Origin: Cyprinodon diabolis
Taxonomy: Eukaryota > Chordata > Actinopteri > Cyprinodontiformes > Cyprinodontidae
Direction of reading: 5' to 3'
DNA: 64,000 nucleotides
Assembly (NCBI GenBank): GCA_030533445.1
Contig: CM060065.1
Coordinates: 4,970,974 to 5,034,973 of the forward strand
The stretch's first letter is position 1; each line of letters begins with the position of its first letter. The position numbers and the translations under genes are program-made. A model generated the notes under the pieces. The model was not told the DNA's origin, ran no database searches, and worked only from the letters and a program-made list of their open reading frames with translations. This document shows positions 1,037 through 54,285 of this stretch, in pieces.

Positions 1037-1318
1037 AGATATCTCTAATGCAAAATGGTTCCATATTTTTCCTTTGGTCTCTTCTCTCCAAAGACAGATG
1101 CAGCCGAGAGAATGTCTTGCTTTTATTTGCTGTGATAAGTGGGAAAAAGGAATTTTCAGATGTCTTTAAACCTTACACTTGTCCACCATAGACTTTGCAT
1201 GTAAGCCAGTGAAAACATGTTTGAATGCGCCATGAGTCACTTAATTCAGTTTTATTCGTCTTTCTTGTGAGGTGGCTGTTTTCTCCATCTCCGTATTTAT
1301 GTCTCTCTCCATCTCCAG

Positions 1319-1583
1319 ATCTTTCAAGGCCTTCTTTGTGTTTTCTACAACCTTGGTGACGGACACTACAACTTAACCCTGCCCAGCTATCGCCTTGACA
1401 ACGGGGAGTGGCACGAGGTCTTTTTGGACAGACATGACAACATGATGACGTTACGGCTGGACGGTGGTGGAGGGAAACGGGAGGTGACGGGATCACAGGG
1501 CAGAAGCCGAGAAATCATCATCAACTCCACCGCCGTGATGTTGGGAAACTCCTTCCCCTCTGAAATAAACAAGAGCTTCCAAG
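1319..1583 (+). CDS. Type III (neural-cadherin-like) cadherin, internal exon: laminin-G domain
   Basis: This exon encodes 88 codons plus one base of a laminin-G domain in a classical type III cadherin, a calcium-dependent adhesion receptor at the plasma membrane. The acceptor is a pyrimidine-rich CTCCATCTCCAG ending at 1318 and the donor is AAG/GTGGGT at 1584, so phase runs from 0 to 1. Visible laminin-G strands are GLLCVFYNLGDGHYNL, LDNGEWHEVFLDRHDN and MTLRLDG, followed by VMLGNSFP near the end. The next exon starts GC-TGC-ATG and completes the usual FQGCMRDLRLNG closing strand of the domain. The frame is open throughout with no frameshift. DN-cadherin and chicken Hz-cadherin have laminin-G then EGF then transmembrane order, which the three exons here reproduce. 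A Fat- or Celsr-type cadherin is less likely because the membrane follows so soon. Confidence 0.8.
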
Positions 1584-1867
1584 GTGGGTGGGAACTGCAT
1601 GCAGCTGGCTTGGTGTCTGCCCTGATGCTTCCACACCACAGCTGTTTGGATCAAAGGCCATGAGAGATTTTGTTTTGATTCATTTATAAAAACAAAATGA
1701 AAATTTCTCTCAGTCACCTTGGGGAATTTTTTTAGCTGTTGTCACCAGAAACACGTGGATCTGTTGCGTTACAGTGCATCTCTGCCAACACGTTCTAATC
1801 TAAACTCCTCATCAGGATGATTTCTGTTCTGGTTGCGCCTACAGACCTGGTGAGAAAGGTGATCCAC

Positions 1868-2850
1868 CCATCACACTGCGTCACAATGTTTCACAATGTG
1901 TTACGCTGTACCAGACTCTGTCACGCTAGGTCACTTTGTATCACACTGTTACATTGTGTCACTCTCCGTCACTCTGTGTCACACTGTTGCACAATGTGTA
2001 ACACTGTGTCACATTATGTAACACTGCATCACACTGCGTGACACTGTCACACTTTGACATACTCTGACACACACCGTCACACTTTCTCATACTGTGGCAC
2101 ACAGTGAGACACAGTGAGACATAGTTTCACACTGTGTCACACTTTGTCACACTGTTGCACAATGTGTAACACTGTGTCACATTTTGTAACACTGCATCAC
2201 ACTGCATGACACTGTCACACTCTGACACACTGGCACACACCGTCACACTGTCTCACACTGTGGCACACAGTGAGACATAGTGTCACACTGTGTCACTATA
2301 TCACACTGTTGCACACTTTGTCACACTGTCTCACACTGTCACACTGCCACAAAATGTGTCAAATTATGTCACACTGCATCACACTGTCATACAGCCACAC
2401 TGTGTCACACTATTTCAGACTGTGGCACACAGTGTCACACTGTTGCACACTGTGTCATACTTTGTCACACGGTATTACACTGTGGGTCACACTTAATCAC
2501 AGTGTATCACACTGCATCACAGTGTATCACACTGCATCACACTGTCATACTGCCACACTGTGTGACACTGTTACACTTTGTCACACTGTGGCACACAGTG
2601 TCACACTGTTGCACACTGTGTCATACTTTGTCACGCTGTATTACACTGTGGGTCACACTGTATCACGGTGTATCACACTGCATTACACTGTAATGCACTG
2701 CATCACACTGTTTCACATTGCATTACACTGTACAGCACTACATCACACTGTATTTCATTAGGTTACATTGTATTTCACTGTTTTACACACTTATAACTCT
2801 GTATCAGACTGTTTTACACTGTTTCACATTGTGTCACACTGGATCCCACT
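1868..2850. repeat. TCACACTGTG-type degenerate satellite, about 980 bp
   Basis: The stretch is an irregular tandem array built from 8-12 bp variants of TCACACTGTG, TCACACTGTT and GCACACTGTG, with related GTGACACAG-sense patches near 2095-2120 and 2265-2280. Because the period varies, no frame has a consistent repeat, yet several + strand frames stay open and give His/Cys/Thr/Ser-rich phantom ORFs (SHCVTLHHTV type). These are not proteins. Confidence 0.9.
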
Positions 2851-20344: not shown

Positions 20345-21385
20345 TCAGTATTTAGTTGGGCCTCCTTTGGCCTGTATTACTGCAGCAATGCGGCGTGGCA
20401 TGGAGTCGATCAGTCTGTGGCACTGCTCAGGTGTTATGATAGCCCAGGTTGCTCTAATAGTGGCTTTTAGCTCTTCTGAATTGTTGGGTCTGGTGTATTG
20501 CATCTTCTTCTTCACAATACCCCATATATTTTCTATGGGGTTAAGGTCAGGAGAGTTTGCTGGCCAATTAAGAACAGGGATACCATGGTCCTTCAACCAG
20601 GTACTGGTAGCTTTGGCACTGTGTGCAGGTGCCAAGTCCTGTTGGAAAATGAAATCTGCATCTCCAAAAAGTTGGTCAGCTGCAGGAAGCATGAAGTGCT
20701 CTAAAACTTCCTGGTATGTGGCTGCGTTGACCCTGGACCTCAGAAAACACAATGGACCAACACCAGCAGATGACATGGCACCCCAAACCATCACTGACTG
20801 TGGAAACTTTACACTGGACTTCAAGCAACGTGGATGAAGTGCCTCTCTTCTTTTCCTCCAGACTCTGGGACCTTGATTTCCAAAGGAAATGCAAAATTTA
20901 CTTTCATCAGAGAACATGACTTTGGACCACTCACCAGCAGTCCAGTCCTGTTTCTCTTTAGCCCAGGCAAGACGCTTCTGACGCTGTCTGTGGTTCAAGA
21001 GTGGCTTGACACAAGGAATGCGACAGCAGAAACCCATGTCTTTCATACGTCTGTGTGTGGTGGTTCTTGAAGCACTCACTCCAGCTGCAGTCCACTCTTT
21101 GTGAATCTCCCCCACATTTTTGAATGGGTTTTGTTTCACAATCCTCTCCAGGGTGCGGTTATCTCTCTTGCTTGTACACTTTTTTCGACCACATCTTTTC
21201 CTTCCCTTCGCCTCTCTATTAATGTGCTTGGACACTGAGCTCTGTGAACAGCCAGCCTCTTTAGCGATGACCTTTTGTGTCTTGCCCTCCTTGTGCAAGG
21301 TGTCGATGGTCGTCTTTTGGACAACTGTCAAGTCAGCAGTCTTCCCCATGATTGTGTAGCCTATAGAACTAGACTGAAAGACCAT
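20345..21385 (-). CDS. Tc1-family DDE transposase, intact frame
   Basis: This frame encodes the enzyme that cuts out and reinserts the flanking Tc1 element at TA dinucleotides. It has 346 codons from the first ATG. The conventional Tc1 start is the internal MGKTADLTVVQKT at residue 13, which gives 334 residues, the usual size. The N-terminus holds a helix-turn-helix (GKTQKVIAKEAGCSQSSVSKHI) and then a second HTH with a GRKK AT-hook-like stretch. Catalytic residues are visible: D in FSDESKF, D in FQQDLAPAHSA, and E in SPDLNPIENIWG, in the DD34E spacing. There is no frameshift or stop. The stop lies just inside the left inverted repeat. Expression would depend on outside promoters; activity is not shown by sequence alone. 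Confidence 0.92.
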   Translation of the reverse strand: MVFQSSSIGYTIMGKTADLTVVQKTTIDTLHKEGKTQKVIAKEAGCSQSSVSKHINREAKGRKRCGRKKCTSKRDNRTLERIVKQNPFKNVGEIHKEWTAAGVSASRTTTHRRMKDMGFCCRIPCVKPLLNHRQRQKRLAWAKEKQDWTAGEWSKVMFSDESKFCISFGNQGPRVWRKRREALHPRCLKSSVKFPQSVMVWGAMSSAGVGPLCFLRSRVNAATYQEVLEHFMLPAADQLFGDADFIFQQDLAPAHSAKATSTWLKDHGIPVLNWPANSPDLNPIENIWGIVKKKMQYTRPNNSEELKATIRATWAIITPEQCHRLIDSMPRRIAAVIQAKGGPTKY

Positions 21386-31570: not shown

Positions 31571-31982
31571 GTGGGCTACTGTTAACATGGTGTTAGTAAG
31601 GCGCGCTAATGTTAGCATAGTGTTAACATGGTAGGCTAATTTTAGCTTGGTGATAGCAAGGCCGGCTAATGTTAACATGTTGACAGCAAGGTGGGCTAGG
31701 GTTAGCATGGTGATAGAAAGACTGGCTAATGTTAACATGTTGACAGCAAGGTGGGCTAGGGTTAGCTTGGTGATAGCAAGGCCGGCTAATGGTAACATGT
31801 TGACAGCAAGGTGGGCTAGGGTTAGCATGGTGATAGAAAGACTGGCTAATGTTAACATGTTGACAGCAAGGTGGGCTAGGGTTAGCTTGGTGATAGCAAG
31901 GCCGGCTAATGTTAACATGTTGACAGCAAGGTGGGCTAGGGTTAGCATGGTGATAGAAAGACTGGCTAATGTTAACATGGGC
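31571..31982. repeat. 60-bp minisatellite arranged as 120-bp dimers
   Basis: The core unit is GTTAGCNTGGTGATAG...TGTTGACAGCAAGGTGGGCTAGG. From 31681 each unit is exactly 60 bp, and two variants alternate strictly (GCATGG/GAAAGACTGG and GCTTGG/GCAAGGCCGG). Shorter degenerate units lie at 31571-31680. Because 60 is divisible by 3, both strands stay open (31526-32044 minus, 31647-32015 plus); neither is a believable gene. Confidence 0.9.
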
Positions 31983-33598: not shown

Positions 33599-34712
33599 TC
33601 ACCGGCCACTTTATTAGGTACACCTGTCCAACTGCTCGTTAACACTTAATTTCTAAGCAGCCAATCACATGGCGGCAACTCAGTGCATTTAGGCATGTAG
33701 ACATGGTCAAGACAATCTCCTGCGATTCAAACTGAGCATCAGTATGGGGAAGAAAGTTGATTTGAGTGACTTTGAACATGGTCCGAAAAAGAAAAAACAT
33801 CCAGTGAGCGGCAGTTCTGTGGGCGGAAATGCCTTGTTGATGCCAGAGGTCAGAGGAGAATGGCCAGACTGGTTCGAGCTGATAGAAGGGCAACAGTGAC
33901 TCAAATAACCACCCGTTACAACCAAGGTGGGCAGAAGAGCATCTCTGAACGCACAGTACGTCGAACTTTGAGGCAGATGGGCTACAGCAGCAGAAGACCA
34001 CACCGGGTGCCACTCCTTTCAGCTAAGAACAGGAAACTGAGGCTACAATTTGCACAAGCTCCTCGAAATTGGACAATAGAAGATTGGAAAAACGTTGCCT
34101 GGTCTGATGAGTCTCGATTTCTGCTGCGACATTCAGATGGTAGGGTCAGAATTTGGCGTCTACAACATGAAAGCATGGATCCATCCTGCCTTGTATCAAC
34201 GGTTCAGGCTGGTGGTGGTGGTGTCATGGTGTGGGGAATATTTTCTTGGCACTCTTTGGGCCCCTTGGTACCAATTGAGCATCGTTGCAACGCCACAGCC
34301 TACCTGAGTATTGTTGCTGACCATGTCCATCCCTTTATGACCACAATGTACCCAACTTCTGATGGCTACTTTCAGCAGGATAATGCGCCATGTCATAAAG
34401 CTGGAATCATCTCAGACTGGTTTCTTGAACATGACAGTGAGTTCACTGTACTCAAATGGCCTCCACAGTCACCAGATCTCAATCCAATAGAGCATCTTTG
34501 GGATGTGGCGGAACGGGAGATTCGCATCATGGATGTGCAGCCGACAAATCTGCGGCAACTGTGTGATGCCATCATGTCAATATGGACCAAGCTCCCTGAG
34601 GAATGCTTCCAGCACCTTGTTGAATCTATGCCACGAAGAATTGAGGCAGTTCTGAAGGCAAAGGGGGTCCAACCCGTTACTAGCATGGGGTACCTAATAA
34701 AGTGGCCGGTGA

Positions 34713-34714
<2 letters not shown>
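33596..34714 (+). mobile_element. Mariner/Tc1-like element inserted in a TA microsatellite
   Basis: The inverted ends ACTCACCGGCCACTTTATTA and TAATAAAGTGGCCGGTGAGT are about 26 bp. Both sides are (TA)n, the natural target. The element is about 1.1 kb, and the transposase is damaged near its start. Confidence 0.9.
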
Positions 34715-34788
<74 letters not shown>

Positions 34789-34873
34789 TTTACCAGTATA
34801 CCCTGCAGGAATAATAAAAGCTGGCCAGATGGGGAGGTACAGGCCACAGATGTTAAGACACGAAAGCTCTTAA
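33860..34873 (+). pseudogene. Mariner/Tc1 DDE transposase, N-terminally disrupted
   Basis: The frame keeps the catalytic core: D in WSDESRF, D in FQQDNAPCHKA and E in SPDLNPIEHLWD. The expected start, ATG at 33744 followed by GKKVDLSDFE, is in a different frame and joins directly to HGPKKK. Most of the first helix-turn-helix is therefore missing through a deletion that is not a multiple of three. The C-terminus is also off: after LKAKG the frame passes the normal stop region, reads through the right inverted repeat (YLIKWPVS) and into (TA)n as an YIYI run, ending at 34873 in unrelated LINE DNA. The copy is not functional. Confidence 0.88.
34715..34783. repeat. (TA)n microsatellite, right of mariner
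   Basis: It is a TA run of about 69 bp between the mariner and the R4/Dong-like LINE remnant. Confidence 0.95.
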
Positions 34874-40628: not shown

Positions 40629-40708
40629 AGTATTGTCATGATGGGTAAACGGAGGCAAGCCCAAGATGCAGAACAGACACGGAGGAGGCAGGGAAAAAGT
40701 TCAAAATG

Positions 40709-40714
40709 TTTAAT
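40709..40714 (-). terminator. ATTAAA polyadenylation signal of the 2.5-kb LTR
   Basis: It is ATTAAA on the minus strand within CAGAACTTTTATTAAACATT, near the LTR end as expected for the R region. Confidence 0.5.
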
Positions 40715-41181
40715 AAAAGTTCTGAAACACACGGTAAAGCACTGGGACTGGAATGGGTCAGGGGCTGGTTCACTGGAGTCTTGACTGGGACTGGAGACTG
40801 TGGGTTAGCAGAGAGCATGAGAGGCTAAGCATCTAGCTTCAGGCTTAGCAGGGCAGTACTAGATTTGAGCTTCCAGCTCACAGCAGAGATCAACAGGGGA
40901 TTAGCACAAAGGGATCTTCTGGCTGAGCTTCCAGCTCTTAGCAGGGAACAACGGGAAAAATCCACGTATGATTCTTCAAGCTGATTCCACGTAGGTACCT
41001 CCAGGGAAACTCCACATAGGAGTCTTAGGTTAAATCCACGTAGGAATCTTCGGGTTGGCTCACCAGGGCAGATAGCAGGTTAAGCTCACCTAGAGCTTCT
41101 GGCTAGAGACATGTTTCCTGTGATGCAGCTCTCCCAGAGCTGCAGGCCTGAGACAGGTTACCAGTGAGGCAGCTCTTCCAG

Positions 41182-42893
41182 GGCTTCACGAGGAGACAGG
41201 AGGTTAAGCTCATCCAGAGCTTCACAAGGAGACAGGAGGTTAAGCTCATCCAGAGCTTCACGAGGAGACAGGAGGTTAAGCTCATCCAGAGCTTCACGAA
41301 GAGACAGGAGGTTAAGCTCATCCAGAGCTTCACGAGGAGACAGGAGGTTAAGCTCATCCAGAGCTTCACAAGGAGACAGGAGGTTAAGCTCATCCAGAGC
41401 TTCACGAGGAGACAGGAGGTTAAGCTCATCCAGAGCTTCACAAGGAGACAGGAGGTTAAGCTCATCCAGAGCTTCACGAGGAGACAGGAGGTTAAGCTCA
41501 TCCAGAGCTTCACGAAGAGACAGGAGGTTAAGCTCATCCAGAGCTTCACGAGGAGACAGGAGGTTAAGCTCATCCAGAGCTTCACGAGGAGACAGGAGGT
41601 TAAGCTCATCCAGAGCTTCACAAGGAGACAGGAGGTTAAGCTCATCCAGAGCTTCACAAGGAGACAGGAGGTTAAGCTCATCCAGAGCTTCACGAGGAGA
41701 CAGGAAGTTAAGCTCATCCAGAGCTTCACGAGGAGACAGGAGGTTAAGCTCATCCAGAGCTTCAAGAGGAGACAGGAGGTTAAGCTCATCCAGAGCTTCA
41801 CAAGGAGACAGGAGGTTAAGCTCATCCAGAGCTTCACAAGGAGACAGGAGGTTAAGCTCATCCAGAGCTTCACGAGGAGACAGGAGGTTAAGCTCATCCA
41901 GAGCTTCACGAGGAGACAGGAAGTTAAGCTCATCCAGAGCTTCACGAGGAGACAGGAGGTTAAGCTCATCCAGAGCTTCAAGAGGAGACAGGAGGTTAAG
42001 CTCATCCAGAGCTTCACGAGGAGACAGGAGGTTAAGCTCATCCAGAGCTTCACGAGGAGACAGGTGGTTAAGCTCATCCAGAGCTTCACGAGGAGACAGG
42101 AGGTTAAGCTCATCCAGAGCTTCACGAGGAGACAGGAGGTTAAGCTCATCCAGAGCTTCACGAGGAGACAGGTGGTTAAGCTCATCCAGAGCTTCACGAG
42201 GAGACAGGTGGTTAAGCTCATCCAGAGCTTCACGAGGAGACAGGTGGTTAAGCTCATCCAGAGCTTCACGAGGAGACAGGTGGTTAAGCTCATCCAGAGC
42301 TTCACGAGGAGACAGGTGGTTAAGCTCATCCAGAGCTTCACGAGGAGACAGGTGGTTAAGCTCATCCAGAGCTTCACGAGGAGACAGGTGGTTAAGCTCA
42401 TCCAGAGCTTCACGAGGAGACAGGAGGTTAAGCTCATCCAGAGCTTCACGAGGAGACAGGTGGTTAAGCTCATCCAGAGCTTCACGAGGAGACAGGAGGT
42501 TAAGCTCATCCAGAGCTTCACGAGGAGACAGGTGGTTAAGCTCATCCAGAGCTTCACGAGGAGACAGGAGGTTAAGCTCATCCAGAGCTTCACGAGGAGA
42601 CAGGAGGTTAAGCTCATCCAGAGCTTCACGAGGAGACAGGTGGTTAAGCTCATCCAGAGCTTCACGAGGAGACAGGAGGTTAAGCTCATCCAGAGCTTCA
42701 CGAGGAGACAGGAGGTTAAGCTCATCCAGAGCTTCACGAGGAGACAGGTGGTTAAGCTCATCCAGAGCTTCACGAGGAGACAGGTGGTTAAGCTCATCCA
42801 GAGCTTCACGAGGAGACAGGTGGTTAAGCTCATCCAGAGCTTCACGAGGAGACAGGAGGTTAAGCTCATCCAGAGCTTCACGAAGGGACAGGA
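41182..42893. repeat. 36-bp minisatellite, about 47 copies, exact period
   Basis: The unit is GAGCTTCACGAGGAGACAGG plus AGGTTAAGCTCATCCA. The period is exactly 36 bp for at least 45 units with no indel. Variants are substitutions only: CGAGG/CAAGG/CGAAG, TTCAC/TTCAA and AGGAGG/AGGTGG. The AGGTGG form occurs only from about 42060 on. Because 36 is a multiple of three, three frames stay open for 579-598 codons (two minus, one plus); these are by-products of the repeat. Confidence 0.97.
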
Positions 42894-42940
42894 TTCCAAC
42901 TAAGATCAACACTGCGGCGTTGAGGCAAGGTCTGAAGTCA

Positions 42941-42950
42941 GCTTATATAG
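42941..42950 (-). promoter_or_regulatory. TATA box of the 2.5-kb LTR
   Basis: It is CTATATAAGC on the minus strand. The minisatellite begins about 50 bp downstream, so the array would be transcribed. Confidence 0.55.
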
Positions 42951-43315
42951 GAGAGGTCTTCTGATGAGAGGATTAGCAACAGGTGTGCAGGAAGGTTCCA
43001 GCTCCAGAAGACCCACGGCGCACTCTGCTGGAGACAGAGGGTAGTCTCCAGATCCCCACAGTAACTCCAACCCTAAGGGGAAAACACAGAGCAGAAGAGG
43101 ATCCTCGGCGCCCTCTGGAGGGCAAGCCTGAGGATCCTAACAAGTATTTTATTTACTGTCACTGCAAACTGAAAGTCTTCATCTTCAGTCTTGAATTTAT
43201 GCAGAGAGCTTTTAGCTACGGCAGCCGAGAGCTGAAATACTAATGCCTGTAGAGATATTCATTACGCCAAAATGTGACTGGGCCAGGTTAGGACTTCAGA
43301 AAATAGGAATCCTCT

Positions 43316-53284: not shown

Positions 53285-53780
53285 GCAATCCCTCACACTA
53301 AGCATGCTTGTAGCGACAGTTGAGAGGAAAAACTTCATTTTAACAGGAAGAAACCTCAAGCAGAACCAGACTCACTGTGAGCGGCCATCTGCCGAGGCCG
53401 ACTGGGGTTCAAGGAGACAGAAGTAGACATAGAAAAAGAAGCTGAGATATAAAATGTTACTATAAATCAGCTCCACACGCAGCCCCGTTCAGGAAACACA
53501 CAGCCAGGTAGACGAACTCCAAACCAGCTCCCATGTCAGGAGATGAAGAGAGCACATCCACCCAGTCACAGTCAGAGAAACAGGACTACACTGAAAAACA
53601 GGCTGATCTGGAACATATGTAAACAAAGGTGTTGATGGCAGCAGCACAGCTGTTATTTCTTTCCAGGATGGAGTCACAGCCGAAATGAAACAAGAAGAGG
53701 CAAAGCTACTATGAGAAAAAATATAATGTATATATAAAATGAAGCAGCATGATGAAAAAGGGGTCCCTATGTCTTCAAAC
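53285..53780 (-). mobile_element. L2-like LINE 3' fragment (copy H)
   Basis: It runs from AATCCCTCACACTAAGCATG to GGGGTCCCTATGTC. It ends about 65 bp upstream of the cadherin exon at 53847. Confidence 0.85.
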
Positions 53781-53846
53781 CGACTTTATTGAATCCAAAA
53801 GCAATTGTCATGACACCATTTTTCCCCCCTTAAAATCTGTCTGCAG

Positions 53847-54091
53847 GTGTCCACCTGGTCACATGGTTCGTGTGAACGGCACCAAAAAGTCCTGTGTGTA
53901 CACCCTGTGTGCTGCTCGTCCCTGTCACAGAGGAACCTGCGTAGCCCAGTCCCCCTCAAAGTTCACCTGTCACTGTCCAGAGGGCTTCAGAGGGCGCCAC
54001 TGTGAGACGACATTAGCAATTTACAGAGACGACGTGGGCCTGAGCTTCAGCTCACTCTTTGCCATCTGCATCTGCTTTATGGCGTTACTGG
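53847..54091 (+). CDS. Type III cadherin exon: EGF-like modules and start of transmembrane segment
   Basis: The exon has 245 bp, enters in phase 2 and leaves in phase 1 (CTG-G/GTAAGT). It finishes the first EGF-like module (RCPPGHMVRVNGTKKSC, with an NGT glycosylation sequon) and encodes a second complete one: CAARPC, HRGTC, and FTCHCPEGFRGRHC, six cysteines in EGF order. After ETTLAIYRDDVG the chain turns hydrophobic (LSFSSLFAICICFMALL), the beginning of the membrane helix. Laminin-G, EGF and membrane order is that of DN-/Hz-type cadherins. The catenin-binding cytoplasmic tail should follow in later exons, which I did not find with confidence in the remaining 9.9 kb. Confidence 0.85.
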
Positions 54092-54285
54092 GTAAGTGAT
54101 GCATTTGATCACAGCAGGGGGGCAGAAATGGGTCAATTGTCACAGGCCCAGGACAGAGGGGGAAAAACAATTGACACTCTGACCATTAGAAATACAGGCA
54201 GATGTAATCTTTCACATAATTTTTGTGAGAAAAATATAAAATCTTAGATTAATTACATAGATAGATAGAAAGACAGATAGATAGG

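What the first reader, a model, noticed from the sequence alone, without database searches (positions are those of the whole stretch)
40634..43142. A 2.5-kb solo LTR whose transcribed part is two-thirds minisatellite
The 36-bp array sits inside a unit with TG...CA ends, 5-bp AGTAT duplications on both sides, a TATA box about 50 bp upstream of the array and ATTAAA near the far end (all on the minus strand). The array would thus be the leader or body of an LTR transcript. LTRs of this size with about 1.7 kb of exact tandem repeat inside are unusual, and the array may be expanding as part of a mobile unit.
Basis: partly seen in the sequence, partly recalled or inferred. Interest (0 to 1): 0.75.

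Follow-up and report, generated by a model that had tools for sequence, protein, structure and literature searches.

The report
Solo LTR swollen by a minisatellite
This is a leftover end of a common retrotransposon whose start-of-transcript region is built of short tandem repeats, and in this copy one 36-base repeat has grown to 47 copies, so it shows how a mobile element can carry and seed growing repeat arrays.

Summary
Window 40634-43142 is a solo LTR with TG...CA ends, a perfect 5-bp AGTAT duplication, TATA box, ATTAAA and a 36-bp array of 47 strict units. The host genome has 2,304 places with its start-site tag at up to 3 mismatches. Eight fetched full elements have paired LTRs and identical 5-bp flanks; they are about 5 kb. 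ORFs scanned from five of them give a Ty3-type Gag and no pol domain. Eleven nt just below the TATA box are complementary to the stretch after the LTR, as in self-primed Tf1/sushi elements. This puts the RNA start near 42918 and the array in R (inferred). All 49 R stretches examined hold tandem modules. 27 of 29 other LTRs have 1-5 of the 36-bp units; longer arrays form a tail, and one is longer than this one. Another copy has a 25-bp x 44 array in the same R. Unit numbers agree between the two LTRs of an element in 6 of 8 pairs, more than between elements. The extreme arrays look like later growth in place. LTR minisatellites are known; the R of a seemingly self-primed element is the new variant.

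The parts
40629..40633 (.). 5-bp target site duplication AGTAT, low side
40634..43142 (-). solo LTR, 2,509 bp, of a gag-only retrotransposon family with Ty3-type Gag
   Evidence: both ends shared with paired LTRs elsewhere
43143..43147 (.). 5-bp target site duplication AGTAT, high side
42919..43142 (-). U3 (promoter part)
   Evidence: upstream of inferred start; 0 of 247 differences to both L009 LTRs over U3 plus the first bases of R
42942..42949 (-). TATA box TATATAAG
   Evidence: 31 nt from box start to inferred RNA start
42908..42918 (-). putative self-primer / RNA 5' end GCCGCAGTGTT, complementary to the PBS of full elements
   Evidence: inferred, no RNA data
41187..42878 (-). 36-bp minisatellite, 47 strict units, inside inferred R
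41083..41188 (-). older 44-bp modules related to the 36-bp unit
   Evidence: like modules in other copies
40709..40714 (-). polyadenylation signal ATTAAA near the inferred end of R
   Evidence: only ATTAAA/AATAAA on this strand of the LTR

Best explanation
The feature is a solo LTR, presumably left by LTR-LTR recombination, of an abundant gag-only retrotransposon with Ty3-type Gag that probably primes reverse transcription with its own RNA 5' end. Its inferred R region, from the RNA start to the poly(A) site, is a mosaic of short tandem modules (36/44, about 25 and about 58 bp). Shown: module number differs between insertions and mostly agrees between the two LTRs of one insertion. Inferred: small changes arise around transposition (RNA or cDNA slippage, strand transfer in R) and are inherited by daughters. 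Some insertions then run away in place, by unequal exchange, conversion or slippage, into long minisatellites. Here one 36-bp unit stands at 47, while the flanking LTR differs by about 0.5% from a relative that has 3 units.
For: 2,304 start-site tags, 0 in the reversed-pattern control. 8 of 8 fetched full elements have two LTRs and identical 5-bp flanks. Ty3_capsid, E 4.6e-12 to 2.2e-14, in ORFs of 5 of 8 elements, no pol domain in these ORFs. PBS complementarity of 11 nt in 5 of 8, 10 nt in 2, 8 nt in 1, next best 6 nt in all. Unit numbers 1-12 in 29 other LTRs; equal in 6 of 8 LTR pairs, permutation p 0.007. Array tail up to about 3.7 kb. A 25-bp x 43.8 array in R of L034. In the window array variant B lies only in units 2-23 and C-F only in units 25-46; the three variants seen twice (D, E, F) recur exactly 6 units apart. 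4 differences in 787 compared positions to the 3' LTR of L009, which has 3 units.
Against: No RNA data: start, polyadenylation and self-priming are inferred from sequence. The within/between comparison has 8 pairs, several related and chosen from the best hits, and conversion between LTRs would mimic it; by array length only 5 of 8 pairs agree. Among 6 places with same-strand neighbours about 4 kb apart, aligned lengths agree in 2 and differ in 4, which favours change after insertion. The longest repeated block of unit variants (7 units) is reached by 30 of 500 shuffles, so block duplication is weakly supported. An expanded state may have been inherited from a source copy not examined. Array length rests on one assembly. 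No autonomous partner with the same LTR was found.
Confidence: 0.78

Rival explanations
1. The 47-unit array was already long in the RNA that made this insertion: arrays grow chiefly in reverse transcription (mis-registered first strand transfer in R or template slippage) and the solo LTR merely kept it.
For: The arrays lie in the inferred R, the part used in first strand transfer; LTR pairs agree more than shuffles; L010 carries the same five-unit pattern in both LTRs but for one change; the internal part also carries 30/36/39-bp arrays that differ between copies; some same-strand pairs about 4 kb apart have aligned arrays of 322-501 bp, which I take as about 5-10 units because 322, 430 and 574 bp correspond to 5, 8 and 12 units in L010, L018 and L022.
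Against: The two longest 36-bp arrays (window and C22) are not in 5' LTRs; no other scored place matches the window array at more than 98%, though variant order was not compared; variants recurring 6 units apart suggest growth in place.
Confidence: 0.25
2. The array is an ordinary host minisatellite into which an LTR inserted, or it lies beside an LTR by chance.
For: Tandem arrays are common in this window (29 rows).
Against: At least one unit sits at the same place in all 29 other LTRs; the length series 67+36k of related LTRs includes the window.
Confidence: 0.01
3. The modules are kept because they form RNA hairpins needed by the leader (AAGCTC-loop-GAGCTT in each unit).
For: One 36-nt unit alone folds into a 6-bp hairpin, z -1.5, 18 of 200 shuffles as good; the AGCTC...GAGCT core recurs in 16 distinct forms.
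Against: No excess for 125 nt of array (z -0.5), for two 44-nt modules (z 0.9 and 0.45) or for a 710-nt stretch from the start to the PBS of L009 (z -0.9, 20 shuffles); the pair outside the core is A-T, A-G, C-G, A-C or C-T in 6, 6, 2, 1 and 1 of the 16 forms, i.e. no covariation.
Confidence: 0.08
4. The array length is an assembly artefact.
For: Single unnamed assembly; no reads available.
Against: Ordered variants with both ends anchored in LTR arms; long arrays of the unit at other places too.
Confidence: 0.05

Closest known systems
Mouse hypervariable minisatellites Ms6-hm and Hm-2 in MaLR LTRs (Kelly 1994; seen as citations, passages and a table row in PMC9659126, PMC6466679, PMC6947457; original not read)
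   Same: A minisatellite that arose inside an LTR of a non-autonomous element family.
   Different: Here a family with Ty3-type Gag and apparent self-priming; two different modules of one R region are expanded in different copies; unit number mostly shared by LTR pairs.
Human ERV9/LTR12 (passages read in PMC11853044)
   Same: LTR length varies by number of tandem repeats of more than one class (about 41 bp in U3, 72 bp in U5).
   Different: There U3 (5-17 copies) and U5; here the inferred R, downstream of the start, with 47 and about 100 copies in the two longest seen.
Gmr9/GmOgre minisatellites of soybean (abstract, background and discussion read, PMC3305785)
   Same: Ty3-gypsy family with five interleaved polymorphic minisatellites, up to 149 times per locus.
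   Different: There between coding region and LTR; here inside the LTR and also in the internal part after the capsid.
CRM1TR/CRM4TR of maize (abstract read, PMC3648361)
   Same: Tandem repeats derived from LTR/UTR of Ty3/gypsy elements; enlargement ascribed to gene conversion.
   Different: There whole loci of monomers spanning LTR and UTR; here 36-bp units within an intact LTR.
Tf1/sushi self-primed elements (passages read in PMC4600332 and PMC6317226; Butler 2001 seen only as a citation)
   Same: RNA 5' end complementary to the PBS.
   Different: No pol seen here, so the clade cannot be tested; here a tandem-repeat R lies between primer and PBS.

Membership tests
LTR retrotransposon solo LTR | TG...CA ends with target site duplication | tested here: met
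LTR retrotransposon solo LTR | same sequence as paired LTRs around an internal region | tested here: met
   8 full elements
LTR retrotransposon solo LTR | empty orthologous site in a relative | not testable with these tools
   no relatives held; paralogous repeat copies read across the join in 26 of 29 rows
Ty3/Gypsy lineage (as a non-autonomous derivative) | Ty3-type Gag capsid | tested here: met
   PF19259 above cut-off in ORFs of 5 of 8 elements (L012-L016); ORFs of L009-L011 not scanned
Ty3/Gypsy lineage (as a non-autonomous derivative) | RT phylogeny | not testable with these tools
   no RT found in this family's copies
Autonomous Ty3/Gypsy element | pol (PR-RT-RH-IN) | tested here: not met
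   no pol domain in the five ORFs scanned; hence not filed as autonomous
Tf1/sushi group | RNA 5' end complementary to PBS (self-priming) | tested here: met
   complementarity only, no RNA or biochemical test
Tf1/sushi group | RT/integrase clade with chromodomain | not testable with these tools
   no pol seen; hence not filed as a member
Minisatellite | tandem units of some 10-100 bp, number variable | tested here: met
   variable between copies; variation between individuals not testable

The most novel reading that the evidence does not exclude
The R region of this self-primed element is a minisatellite generator: because R is where the primer lies, where the strong-stop cDNA jumps and where both RNA ends are alike, each transposition cycle can change module number, so one family keeps releasing new tandem arrays of different units across the genome and tolerates a primer-to-PBS distance that varies several-fold.
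Probability: 0.25. Interest if true: 0.65.

Novelty: new variant of a known kind. Interest (0 to 1): 0.42.

Why it matters
Mobile elements are known sources of minisatellites. Here over two thousand tagged places of one R region, some in paired LTRs that serve as built-in clocks, allow one to ask when arrays change: in reverse transcription or after insertion. If R arrays of any length are tolerated in a self-primed element, the folding that brings primer to PBS must be insensitive to the distance.

Tried and rejected
Hairpin function of the unit: no folding excess beyond one isolated unit and no covariation. Long open frames through the array (579-598 aa, three frames): expected, since 36 is a multiple of 3 and the unit lacks stops in those frames; no evidence of translation. 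Autonomous partner: one pair of tags 7.2 kb apart among the 100 places listed (C10:16415783 and 16422963) was sampled with 1.1 kb; it shows the gag start and 98 bp of LTR end, then DNA that does not match the LTR arms, i.e. apparently an insertion, and no pol frame was recognised by eye. Another tag 6.3 kb from the L009 pair was not sampled. The Gag of L012 found no relative in the protein collection (1,973 candidates, none at E 1e-3). Counting long arrays by gapped patterns did not work. Species: not named; that the host is a fish is my guess from genome size and repeat types, from no call.

Literature on arrays in R of a self-primed element: searches; the one paper holding all terms (PMC3601003) was seen only in the listing. 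Not found in these searches does not mean not in print; most subscription papers are not held.

Full report
Observation. The array has 47 strict units of six types, differing at five columns.

Family. The left arm (547 bases) finds 40 scored places of 1,530 candidates at 94-100% identity in the window's own genome. A 33-base tag around the inferred start finds 2,304 places with up to 3 mismatches, against 0 for the reversed pattern; 100 of them are listed. From 20 regions chosen among the best hits (so close relatives) I cut 29 LTRs besides the window: 16 form eight pairs around an internal region, 9 have no internal end at either side (solos), and 4 are single LTRs next to the PBS or to the 3' internal end. 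Weaker partial relatives in L021 and L024 (77-86%) were left out. All eight full elements and all nine solos have identical 5-bp flanks. The other LTRs are 688-1,339 bp long.

Element. Full elements are 4.7-5.3 kb with internal parts of 2.75-3.37 kb. Frames of 976, 1,091 and 1,017 aa run from the LTR end in L012, L015 and L016; in the other five that frame is shorter (112-665 aa). Ty3_capsid and Retrotrans_gag are found in ORFs of L012-L016, and no pol domain there; the ORFs of L009-L011 were listed but not scanned. The part after the capsid is a chain of arrays of 30, 36, 39 and 79 bp in the eight elements (79 bp not reported in L014).

Priming and R. The bases after the LTR (GAACACTGCGG...) do not begin with TGG, as a PBS for a tRNA 3' end would (recalled), and are complementary to a run that starts 31-34 nt after the start of the TATA box: 11 nt in L009, L010, L011, L014, L015, 10 in L013 and L016, 8 in L012; next best run 6 in all eight. 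A shuffled PBS gave a run of 11 or more anywhere in the window's LTR arms in 7 of 2,000 trials, without asking for the position. This is the layout of self-primed elements (PMC4600332, PMC6317226, passages read). It sets the RNA start near 42918; the array then begins about 40 nt into the RNA, and the single ATTAAA at 40709-40714 puts it in R, hence at both ends of a full RNA. This is inference from sequence.

Modules. In the 30 loci (the first 30 exact matches in contig order; one is the window itself) R is built of 36/44-bp, about 25-bp and about 58-bp modules in changing number. 49 distinct R stretches all gave at least one array; 40 had both ends within reach: 393-2,217 bp, the window longest, then L034 (1,494 bp) with 43.8 copies of the 25-bp module; 9 were cut and not measured. 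The 36-bp unit number is 1-12 in the 29 other LTRs, over 5 in two. With the whole array as query, 40 of 550 candidates were scored: besides the window a place on C22 spanning about 3.7 kb, then aligned lengths of about 1.0, 0.8, 0.8, 0.6, 0.6 and 0.6 kb and a tail. Aligned lengths include some flanking module sequence (322, 430 and 574 bp stand for 5, 8 and 12 units in L010, L018, L022). Both ends of the C22 array were read, not its middle: family start-site region on one side, LTR end without PBS on the other; it is a solo or a 3' LTR, its U3 start was not read. The 25-bp array also has a few long relatives (40 of 666 candidates scored).

When do arrays change? In eight LTR pairs the unit number is equal in six, summed difference 3; shuffling numbers within the two junction types gives this or better in 0.7% and 0.6% of 20,000 trials. 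By array length five of eight agree within 1 bp. Between insertions of the same type with under 3% divergence 32 of 101 LTR pairs agree, window excluded (Fisher p 0.02 against 6 of 8); these pairs are not independent. L010 has the same alternating five-unit pattern in both LTRs but for one base. So array states travel with the element. Against a purely transpositional origin: six places with same-strand neighbours about 4 kb apart (C7, C8, C10, C16, C20, C24; pairing inferred from spacing, found because arrays are long; C10 is L010) agree in two and differ in four by aligned length. In the window array variant B is confined to units 2-23 and C-F to units 25-46; D, E and F occur twice each, exactly 6 units apart; yet the longest repeated block (7 units) is reached by 30 of 500 shuffles. 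The arms differ by 4 of 787 positions from an LTR with 3 units. I read this as a two-step history: small inherited changes, then growth in place.

Context. A LamG domain at 1271-1660 and an EGF domain at 53743-54096, both plus strand, suggest that the LTR sits in an intron, antisense to the host gene; that both are exons of one gene is inferred and the gene was not identified. The flanks joined without the LTR match the window's own two halves at 100%, and 26 further rows of 29, a repeat at 73-82% identity, run across the join without an insert; one row does not reach it.

Novelty. LTR minisatellites (MaLR), LTRs with several variable tandem classes (LTR12) and Ty3-gypsy minisatellite clusters (Gmr9) are known. 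The R position in a seemingly self-primed, gag-only family and the growth of two different modules in different copies make this a new variant, not a new kind.

Noticed in passing
window 1271-1660 (+) and 53743-54096 (+): Laminin G and EGF domains about 52 kb apart, probably exons of one host gene whose intron holds the LTR in antisense.
   Followed up: partly
window 20348-21385 (-) and 33776-34870 (+): Two Tc1/mariner-type transposase frames.
   Followed up: no
window 31571-31980: Nested 30/60/120-bp tandem array.
   Followed up: no
window 1871-2841: Degenerate TCACACTGTG-type array next to the LamG stretch.
   Followed up: no
L034 216-1310 (C1:47442026-47443120): 43.8 copies of a 25-bp module in the same R region of another copy; a further 374-bp match lies about 240 bp away.
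   Followed up: partly
G000:C22:6843677-6846586: About 2.9 kb of a diverged (67%) relative of the 25-bp module; context not read.
   Followed up: no
L012 839-1858 (-) and 7381-7971 (-): The element appears to sit inside an older antisense gypsy-type element: a Ty3-type gag stretch on one side, a protease stretch on the other.
   Followed up: partly
G000 whole genome: The LTR-end plus PBS tag has 3,346 matches at up to 3 mismatches, more than the 2,304 start-site tags, so the PBS is probably shared by a wider clade.
   Followed up: no
window 41103-42912: Three reading frames stay open through the whole array, low complexity.
   Followed up: partly
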